Under the pieces are notes generated by a model. The model searched no databases. It was not told the DNA's origin and worked only from the letters and a program-made list of their open reading frames with translations. This document shows, piece by piece, positions 32,017 through 33,031 of a stretch of 64,000 bases of DNA. A program made the position numbers and the translations under genes. Every line of letters starts with the position of its first letter. Position 1 is the first letter of the stretch. The stretch is taken from NCBI RefSeq assembly GCF_900104745.1, contig NZ_LT629732.1:5009981-5073980 (forward strand). Reading direction: 5' to 3'. The stretch comes from Actinopolymorpha singaporensis (lineage in GTDB: Bacteria; Actinomycetota; Actinomycetes; Propionibacteriales; Actinopolymorphaceae).

Positions 32017-32039
32017 CTGTCGGTGGGGTGTCCTACGCT
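32017..32039 (+). promoter_or_regulatory. PafBC/RecA-NDp-type promoter of the RecB-family nuclease gene
   Basis: TGTCGGTG (32018-32025), exactly 8 nt, then TACGCT (32034-32039), again matching TGTCRGTG-N8-TAnnnT. The ATG at 32048 lies 8 nt past the -10 box, so transcription would begin at or next to the start codon. Confidence 0.7.
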
Positions 32040-32047
32040 TTCGGGCC

Positions 32048-33031
32048 ATGGCGACAGTGAGCGAGGCAGCGACCACGACGGCGACCACCGACGCGACCAC
32101 GAACGCGAGTGGGAACGCCGGTGGAAACGCGAGTGAGAACGCCCGGCCGGCGATCCCGCTCGCGGTGCTGTCACCCTCCCGGGCCAGCGACTTTCTCACC
32201 TGCCCGCTGCGTTACCGCTTCCGGGTGATCGACCGGCTGCCGGAGCGGCCGAGCCCGGAGGCCGCCCGCGGCACGGTGGTGCACGCGGTTCTGGAGCGGC
32301 TGTTCGACCTGCCCGCCGGCGGCCGCACGATCGATGAGGCGTGCACGCTGCTCCGCCCGCAGTGGGACCGGCTGGTCGAGGCCGAGCCCGAGCTGTCGGA
32401 ACTCTTCGGGGACGAGGAGGGCGGGTTCGACCCCGAGCGGCTGGAGGGTTTCCTCGCCGATGCGCGGGCGCTGCTCGACCGATACTTCACGTTGGAGGAC
32501 CCCACCAGGCTGGAGCCCGCCGAGCGGGAGATGTACGTCGAGTGCGAGCTGGACTCCGGCCTGCGGCTGCGGGGCTACATCGACCGGCTCGACGTCGCGC
32601 CCGACGGGGCGCTGCGCGTCGTCGACTACAAGACGGGGCGAGCACCCGGGCCGGGTTACGAGCAGCGGGCGATGTTCCAGATGCGCTGCTACGCACTGAT
32701 GCTGTGGCGGCTGCGAGGTGTCGTACCCCGCCTGCTGCAGCTGGTCTATCTCGGCAGCGGCGACGTGCTGCGCTACTCCCCCGACGAGGCCGACCTGCGC
32801 GCGACCGCACGCAAGCTGCAGGCGCTGTGGAACGCGATCGAACGCGCGCACACCACCGGCGAGTGGCGCGCCAGCCCCGGCCCCCTGTGCGACTGGTGCG
32901 ACCACAAGTCGCGGTGCCCCGCGTGGGGCGGCACGCCTCCTCCGCTGCCCGCGCCCGCCGACACCGATCCGATGCCGACGCAGGACACGTCCGAGGCTCC
33001 CTCACCACATACCTCCGCGGTCGACCTTTAG
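32048..33031 (+). CDS. RecB-family PD-(D/E)XK nuclease with Fe-S cluster
   Basis: 327 residues from ATG at 32048. Nuclease motifs: H79 (GTVVHAVLE), D179 (GYIDRLD), D193 and K195 (VVDYKTGR), and QMRCYALML. Four cysteines, C52 (TCPLRYRF) and C281/C284/C290 ([10 protein letters not shown]), form the AddB/Cas4-type [4Fe-4S] site. Low-complexity Thr/Ala/Asn N-terminus. No helicase domain. Likely a DNA-repair exonuclease; expression predicted to be damage-induced by PafBC. No cas genes nearby, so a Cas4 role is not supported. Confidence 0.9.

What the first reader, a model, noticed from the sequence alone, without database searches (positions are those of the whole stretch)
32017..32048. Second PafBC-type promoter before a RecB-family Fe-S nuclease
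TGTCGGTG-N8-TACGCT again matches the element and places transcription at the ATG of a stand-alone RecB-family nuclease. Two exact matches in 64 kb, both at the starts of repair nucleases, is unlikely by chance and suggests a Pup/PafBC-repair regulon.
Basis: partly seen in the sequence, partly recalled or inferred. Interest (0 to 1): 0.72.

Follow-up and report, generated by a model that had tools for sequence, protein, structure and literature searches.

The report
DNA-damage promoter before repair nuclease
A soil actinobacterium carries a well-known kind of DNA-damage promoter directly in front of a DNA-cutting repair enzyme; the arrangement is real and kept in many relatives, but it belongs to an already known regulatory system.

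Summary
Confirmed, and mostly already known in kind. TGTCGGTG-N8-TACGCT lies at 32018-32039 (+), 8 nt before the ATG (32048) of a 327-aa PD-(D/E)XK nuclease (PF12705) with four invariant cysteines. It fits the RecA-NDp/PafBC promoter, and the window encodes PafC and a PafB-like partner. The genome has 50 exact consensus sites against 0 of the reversed control; downstream genes include recA, uvrA, uvrB, polA and priA. All 79 usable of 80 named orthologue loci carry it 6-9 nt before a start, as do 20 of 20 orthologues in the class sample and 7 of 7 nearest relatives (these sets overlap). The spacer is fixed: N12 in 78 of 79, any other from N7 to N18 in at most 3. Damage induction here is not shown. 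By-product: the element is conserved and enriched in a genus that I infer to be Streptomyces (29 of 30 nuclease loci; 514 sites against 9 control in 11 genomes), although PMC9380542 says an initial search found the mycobacterial motif not conserved in S. venezuelae.

The parts
32018..32039 (+). PafBC/RecA-NDp-type promoter element: TGTCGGTG (32018-32025), N8, -10 hexamer TACGCT (32034-32039)
   Evidence: conserved at orthologues
32046..32048 (+). predicted transcription start (7-9 nt after the hexamer); mRNA leaderless or nearly so; inferred, not measured
   Evidence: positions of hexamer and ATG; hexamer-to-ATG distance 6-9 nt in 78 aligned orthologues (4-10 was allowed)
32048..33031 (+). stand-alone PD-(D/E)XK nuclease, 327 aa, PF12705; H79, D179, D193, K195, Q211, Y215 and C52, C281, C284, C290 kept in 100 of 100 aligned sequences
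9479..9500 (+). second exact element, TGTCGGTG-N8-TAGGTT
   Evidence: an element (once as CGTCGGCA) in 4 of the 6 relatives in which the gene was found
9507..10448 (+). 5'-3' exonuclease (PF02739, PF01367), 313 aa
18266..19339 (-). PafB-like regulator (WYL, WCX domains); called PafB from its place next to PafC, no PafB-specific model matched
17227..18273 (-). PafC (HTH_PafC PF19187, WYL, WCX)
21814..23184 (-). PafA, Pup ligase (PF03136, TIGR03686), part of the locus
25019..25040 (-). weak look-alike TGTCGCCG-N8-TAGGTT, 5 nt before an ATG of the proteasome subunit gene 24078-25076; membership doubtful
   Evidence: 3 of 6 relatives
36528..36549 (-). look-alike TGTCGGCT-N8-TAGGCT, 7 nt before an ATG of an MFS transporter
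   Evidence: in 3 of 4 relatives in which the gene was found, once as CGTCGGTG, with differing spacers
4058..4079 (-). look-alike TGTCGGCG-N8-TAGGCT, 7 nt before a GTG of an M24 peptidase
   Evidence: in 4 of 6 relatives

Best explanation
The element is a PafBC-dependent (RecA-NDp type) promoter of the nuclease gene. On DNA damage, single-stranded DNA binds the WYL domains of PafBC; PafBC then lets the housekeeping RNA polymerase use this promoter, PafB reading the TGTCGGTG block (between about -30 and -21 for a start at 32046-32048, which fits the published '-26 motif') in place of a -35 box, with TACGCT as the -10. The transcript starts at or next to the ATG, so the mRNA is leaderless. The product is a stand-alone PD-(D/E)XK nuclease with a predicted iron-sulfur cluster, most probably acting on DNA ends or single strands during repair. 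Shown here: sequence, position, gene content, conservation, genome-wide site set. From the literature on mycobacteria: the activation mechanism. Inferred: that it operates in this organism, the start site, the iron-sulfur cluster, the nuclease's substrate.
For: Exact consensus at 32018-32039. PafC and PafB-like genes in the window. 50 sites against 0 control. Of the 42 of 50 sites whose downstream protein was scanned, 13 have a plain DNA repair or replication gene, named by me from Pfam domains: recA, uvrA, uvrB, mfd-like, radA-like, polA, priA, dnaN-like, alkylation repair, uracil glycosylase, RNase T/GIY-YIG, and the two window nucleases; where no start lay 5-9 nt away the longest frame starting within 320 nt was taken. 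Orthologues: 79 of 79 usable named loci, 20 of 20 in the class sample, 7 of 7 nearest relatives, 29 of 30 loci of the Streptomyces-like genus; these sets overlap in part. Spacer N12 in 78 of 79, others at most 3 of 79. In 19 of 20 class genomes with the nuclease the best PafC hit lies 10-33 kb away on the same contig; in the twentieth it is on another contig. Literature, passages only: Mtb motif TGTCGG-N10-TA-N3-T (PMC8151990) and rv2119 listed among repair genes overexpressed in the mitomycin C-treated delta-recA strain (PMC8151990); 5'-3' exonuclease MSMEG_3883 at -1.6 in delta-pafBC M. smegmatis proteins (PMC5656591); mechanism (PMC11804915).
Against: No expression data for this organism. 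That rv2119 is the orthologue rests on its published RecB-like label and its recalled place by the proteasome locus; no comparison was made here, and the passages I saw do not name rv2119 as PafBC-dependent. Most scanned downstream genes (29 of 42) are not plain repair genes, some being glycosidases, acetyltransferases or transporters, and 20 of 50 sites have no start 5-9 nt away. In 31 of 79 named loci, chiefly Actinomadura and its kin, the first T is missing (C in 30 of 75 unique aligned sequences). One of 30 loci of the Streptomyces-like genus has no element (L188). Outside the class 3 of 10 examined loci have it, by a script that also asked for YKTG in the protein, and 141 of 221 genomes outside the class have no exact site though many have strong PafC hits.
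Confidence: 0.93

Rival explanations
1. A plain SigA leaderless promoter: only TACGCT matters and the TGTC block is chance.
For: TA-N3-T sites in the window are followed by a start codon 5-9 nt away in 28 of 78 cases without selecting for TGTC, so leaderless -10 promoters seem common here.
Against: GTC stands at exactly 12 nt from the hexamer in 78 of 79 orthologue loci and at other spacers (7-18) in at most 3; TGTC-N12-TA-N3-T in 20 of 20 class orthologues.
Confidence: 0.03
2. The motif is read by another regulator (ClgR, once proposed for the P1 motif, or another WYL-domain protein) rather than PafBC.
For: PMC5656591 discusses ClgR recognising P1 (passages). PF19187 has 6 matches at E 0.001 or better in the own genome, so other PafC-like regulators exist.
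Against: PMC8223512 and PMC6789036 assign RecA-NDp to PafBC (passages); nuclease and best PafC hit are linked in 19 of 20 class genomes.
Confidence: 0.03
3. LexA/SOS control of the nuclease.
For: It is a repair gene, and some genes elsewhere carry both elements (PMC8223512, passages).
Against: No exact GAAC-N4-GTTC box anywhere in the 64 kb window (degenerate boxes not searched); rv2119, if the orthologue, was overexpressed without RecA (PMC8151990).
Confidence: 0.01

Closest known systems
RecA-NDp / PafBC-dependent promoters of Mycobacterium (recA P1 and regulon)
   Same: Non-palindromic TGTC[AG]G-N10-TA-N3-T, -10 hexamer, repair genes downstream, PafBC beside the Pup-proteasome genes
   Different: Different organism (near Actinopolymorpha rutila); induction not measured
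Rv2119, RecB-like exonuclease of M. tuberculosis ('RecB (exo3)' in the table of PMC2587704, passage)
   Same: RecB-family nuclease label, reported overexpression in treated delta-recA cells
   Different: Orthology taken from label and recalled position, not compared here
AdnAB nuclease domains (PDB 6ppu, 7sjr, 6ppj; the name AdnAB is recalled, the entries say UvrD/REP helicase)
   Same: Best sequence match among solved structures, E 4.9e-12
   Different: Those are helicase-nuclease chains of 724-1095 residues; this protein has 327 and no helicase match
AddB C-terminal domain, Cas4
   Same: Weak matches, E 4.9e-11 and 2.7e-9; catalytic and cysteine pattern like theirs (pattern recalled; residues)
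   Different: Far below the curated cut-offs of both families

Membership tests
PafBC / RecA-NDp promoter | TGTC[AG]G-N10-TA-N3-T sequence and spacing | tested here: met
   motif as given in PMC8151990
PafBC / RecA-NDp promoter | PafB and PafC encoded in the genome | tested here: met
   (PafC by its own model, PafB by WYL domain and position)
PafBC / RecA-NDp promoter | Sites before DNA repair genes incl. recA in the same genome | tested here: met
   13 of 42 scanned
PafBC / RecA-NDp promoter | Element conserved at the orthologous gene | tested here: met
   outside the class only 3 of 10
PafBC / RecA-NDp promoter | Damage-induced, PafBC-dependent transcription | not testable with these tools
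   needs RNA data
PD-(D/E)XK RecB/AddB/Cas4-like Fe-S nuclease | PF12705 match and conserved H, D, D-x-K, Q-x3-Y | tested here: met
PD-(D/E)XK RecB/AddB/Cas4-like Fe-S nuclease | Four cysteines (one N-terminal, C-x2-C-x5-C near the C-terminus) | tested here: met
   C52, C281, C284, C290 in 100 of 100; the cluster itself is not shown
Cas4 / AddB proper | Score above the NCBIfam cut-off | tested here: not met
   37.1 of 65 and 41.5 of 486.5 bits

The most novel reading that the evidence does not exclude
In Actinopolymorpha the same promoter type has spread to genes that the PafBC regulon is not described with in the passages I read: an exporter-like MFS gene, an M24 peptidase and possibly the proteasome core genes, so that damage would switch on both the repair proteins and the machine that later removes them; and Streptomyces, where the existence of this response was left open in print, has a full PafBC regulon with a TGTCAGTG-leaning version of the element.
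Probability: 0.3. Interest if true: 0.5.

Novelty: new member of a known kind. Interest (0 to 1): 0.33.

Why it matters
It extends a well-described mycobacterial damage response to a little-studied genus. The conserved leaderless arrangement helps to place start codons and to predict the regulon. The Streptomyces result makes a question left open in print directly testable.

Tried and rejected
SOS box near the gene: no exact GAAC-N4-GTTC in the window. Pairing of two sites in 64 kb as evidence in itself: rejected, 0.5 expected, P 0.09. Relation of the window MFS to the MFS proteins behind L023 and L211: no significant BLASTP match (best E 0.19). Element at the exonuclease as a fixed feature: only partly, 4 of 6 relatives (none within reach of a start in the other two). 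The proteasome gene as a regulon member: look-alike in 3 of 6 relatives, nearly the same sequence each time and in one of them not in frame by the BLAST match, and no PafBC effect on these components in M. smegmatis (PMC5656591); not decided. No structure prediction was run.

Not read: the papers recalled as defining the motif (Gamulin 2004), the regulon (Muller 2018) and sigma adaptation (Muller 2021); the last was looked up and is not held. Paper searches. Passages seen, none read whole: PMC8151990 (and its section 3.5), PMC5656591, PMC11804915, PMC8223512, PMC9380542, PMC5087735, PMC2897130, PMC6789036, PMC2587704, PMC5057432.

Full report
What is there. At 32018-32039 (+) the window reads TGTCGGTGGGGTGTCCTACGCT, and the ATG of a 327-aa protein begins at 32048. 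The protein matches PF12705 (PD-(D/E)XK nuclease, E 8.3e-42), weakly AddB and Cas4 models, and among solved structures best a helicase-nuclease chain, 6ppu (E 4.9e-12), which I recall as AdnAB. In 100 of 100 aligned sequences H79, D179, D193, K195, Q211, Y215 and C52, C281, C284, C290 are the same. I recall this as the pattern of iron-sulfur RecB-type nucleases; the cluster is predicted, not shown. A second exact element lies at 9479-9500, 6 nt before a 5'-3' exonuclease.

Setting. Between the two nucleases lie PafA, PafC, a PafB-like gene and two proteasome subunit genes. The best-matching named genome is Actinopolymorpha rutila (94% identity in the nuclease); the own genome is one contig of 6.40 Mb.

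More than chance. The exact string is found once and in none of 100 shuffles. TGTCGGTG-N8-TA-N3-T occurs 50 times in the genome and its reversed form never. Seven of the 50 share the same 14 nt downstream and look like copies of one DUF222 gene, so the sites are not all independent. Thirty of 50 have a start codon 5-9 nt downstream, against 36% at TA-N3-T sites of the window and 8.8% at random positions. Of 42 downstream proteins scanned, 13 are plain repair or replication proteins by their Pfam domains (recA, uvrA, uvrB, mfd-like, radA-like, polA, priA, dnaN-like, alkylation repair, uracil glycosylase, RNase T/GIY-YIG, and the two in the window); thyX, a DNA methylase and two DUF222 proteins are also there; the other 25 have no repair role that I can name or no family. 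For some of the 13 (uvrA, dnaN-like, mfd-like, uracil glycosylase) the frame taken starts 40-158 nt from the site, not 5-9. In the 25 genomes of the class sample, own genome included, exact sites total 375 against 16 for the control (summed); of the 221 genomes outside the class, 80 have any.

Conservation. Of 80 named nuclease loci (the best 80 of 154 found), 79 hold the start region and all 79 have the element: 23 strict, 19 with TGTC[AG][GC], 6 with TGTC alone and 31 with GTC only. In 78 aligned loci the distance from hexamer to ATG is 6-9 nt. GTC at 12 nt from the hexamer is present in 78 of 79, other spacers from 7 to 18 in 0-3 of 79. The pattern was used to choose the ATG, so the spacer comparison is a fairer test than the 79. 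In the class sample 20 of 25 genomes have a clear orthologue and 20 of 20 carry the element; 3 of 10 loci from outside the class do. The 7 genus and family relatives all carry it; three of them appear to be species already among the 80. The best PafC hit lies 10-33 kb from the nuclease in 19 of the 20 class genomes and on another contig in the other.

Other sites in the window. The looser pattern also stands before an M24 peptidase, a proteasome subunit gene and an MFS transporter. In relatives where the gene was found, an element was seen at the peptidase in 4 of 6, at the proteasome gene in 3 of 6, at the MFS gene in 3 of 4 and at the exonuclease in 4 of 6. The fourth MFS match lacked its first 59 residues, so its start was not really tested.

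Streptomyces. [quoted passage not shown] smegmatis PafBC motif is not conserved in S. venezuelae and leaves open whether such a response exists in the genus. PMC5087735 (passages) had already reported RecA-NDp promoters at S. coelicolor recA and at SCO6735. Here, in the genus that I infer to be that of Streptomyces sp. 8K308, 29 of 30 examined nuclease loci have the element, 19 of the 29 as TGTCAGTG. In 11 genomes of that genus TGTC[AG]GTG-N8-TA-N3-T occurs 514 times against 9 control matches (summed). For the first 20 of 54 sites of one genome, in coordinate order, 9 downstream genes are plain repair or replication genes by Pfam (rarA/mgsA-like, ruvA, recD2-like, uvrA, uvrB, uvrC, methylguanine methyltransferase, DNA polymerase III alpha, the nuclease); the other 11 are a DEAD helicase, five of other families and five without a family. 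Six of the 20 have a start 5-9 nt away. S. venezuelae itself was not tested, record titles can be wrong, and the genus name is my inference.

Mechanism and standing. From PMC11804915 (passages): PafBC, activated by single-stranded DNA, sits between the promoter and SigA domain 4, and the HTH of PafB engages the -26 motif. The TGTCGGTG block would lie between about -30 and -21 for a start at 32046-32048, which fits. In M. tuberculosis rv2119 is listed among repair genes overexpressed in mitomycin C-treated delta-recA cells (PMC8151990), and in M. smegmatis the 5'-3' exonuclease MSMEG_3883 was reduced in delta-pafBC (PMC5656591). Both window nucleases thus have counterparts already tied to this response, if the orthology that I recall holds. 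I file it as a new member of a known kind.

Noticed in passing
window 36528-36549 (-): PafBC-like element 7 nt before an MFS transporter start; an element with differing spacer in 3 of 4 relatives in which the gene was found.
   Followed up: partly
window 25019-25040 (-): Look-alike element 5 nt before an ATG of a proteasome subunit gene; in 3 of 6 relatives.
   Followed up: partly
window 4058-4079 (-): Element-like site before an M24 peptidase, also in 4 of 6 relatives.
   Followed up: partly
L003, L009, L012, L016, L018, L022, L141: Seven exact sites share the same 14 nt downstream with an ATG 6 nt away; the one scanned, L009, is DUF222, as is L002. In G302 (Actinopolymorpha pittospori), 24 of 53 sites share TGTCGGTGGTCGGGTCTA. 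A multiplied family may ride on this promoter.
   Followed up: no
G303, G355-G364; L201-L220: Enriched TGTC[AG]GTG elements, many before repair genes, in a genus inferred to be Streptomyces, against a printed remark on S. venezuelae.
   Followed up: partly
L155:1541-2662: An exact element 6 nt before a predicted N6/N4 DNA methylase.
   Followed up: no
L031-L110, chiefly the Actinomadura loci: First T of the element replaced by C in 30 of 75 unique aligned sequences, a lineage variant of the motif.
   Followed up: no
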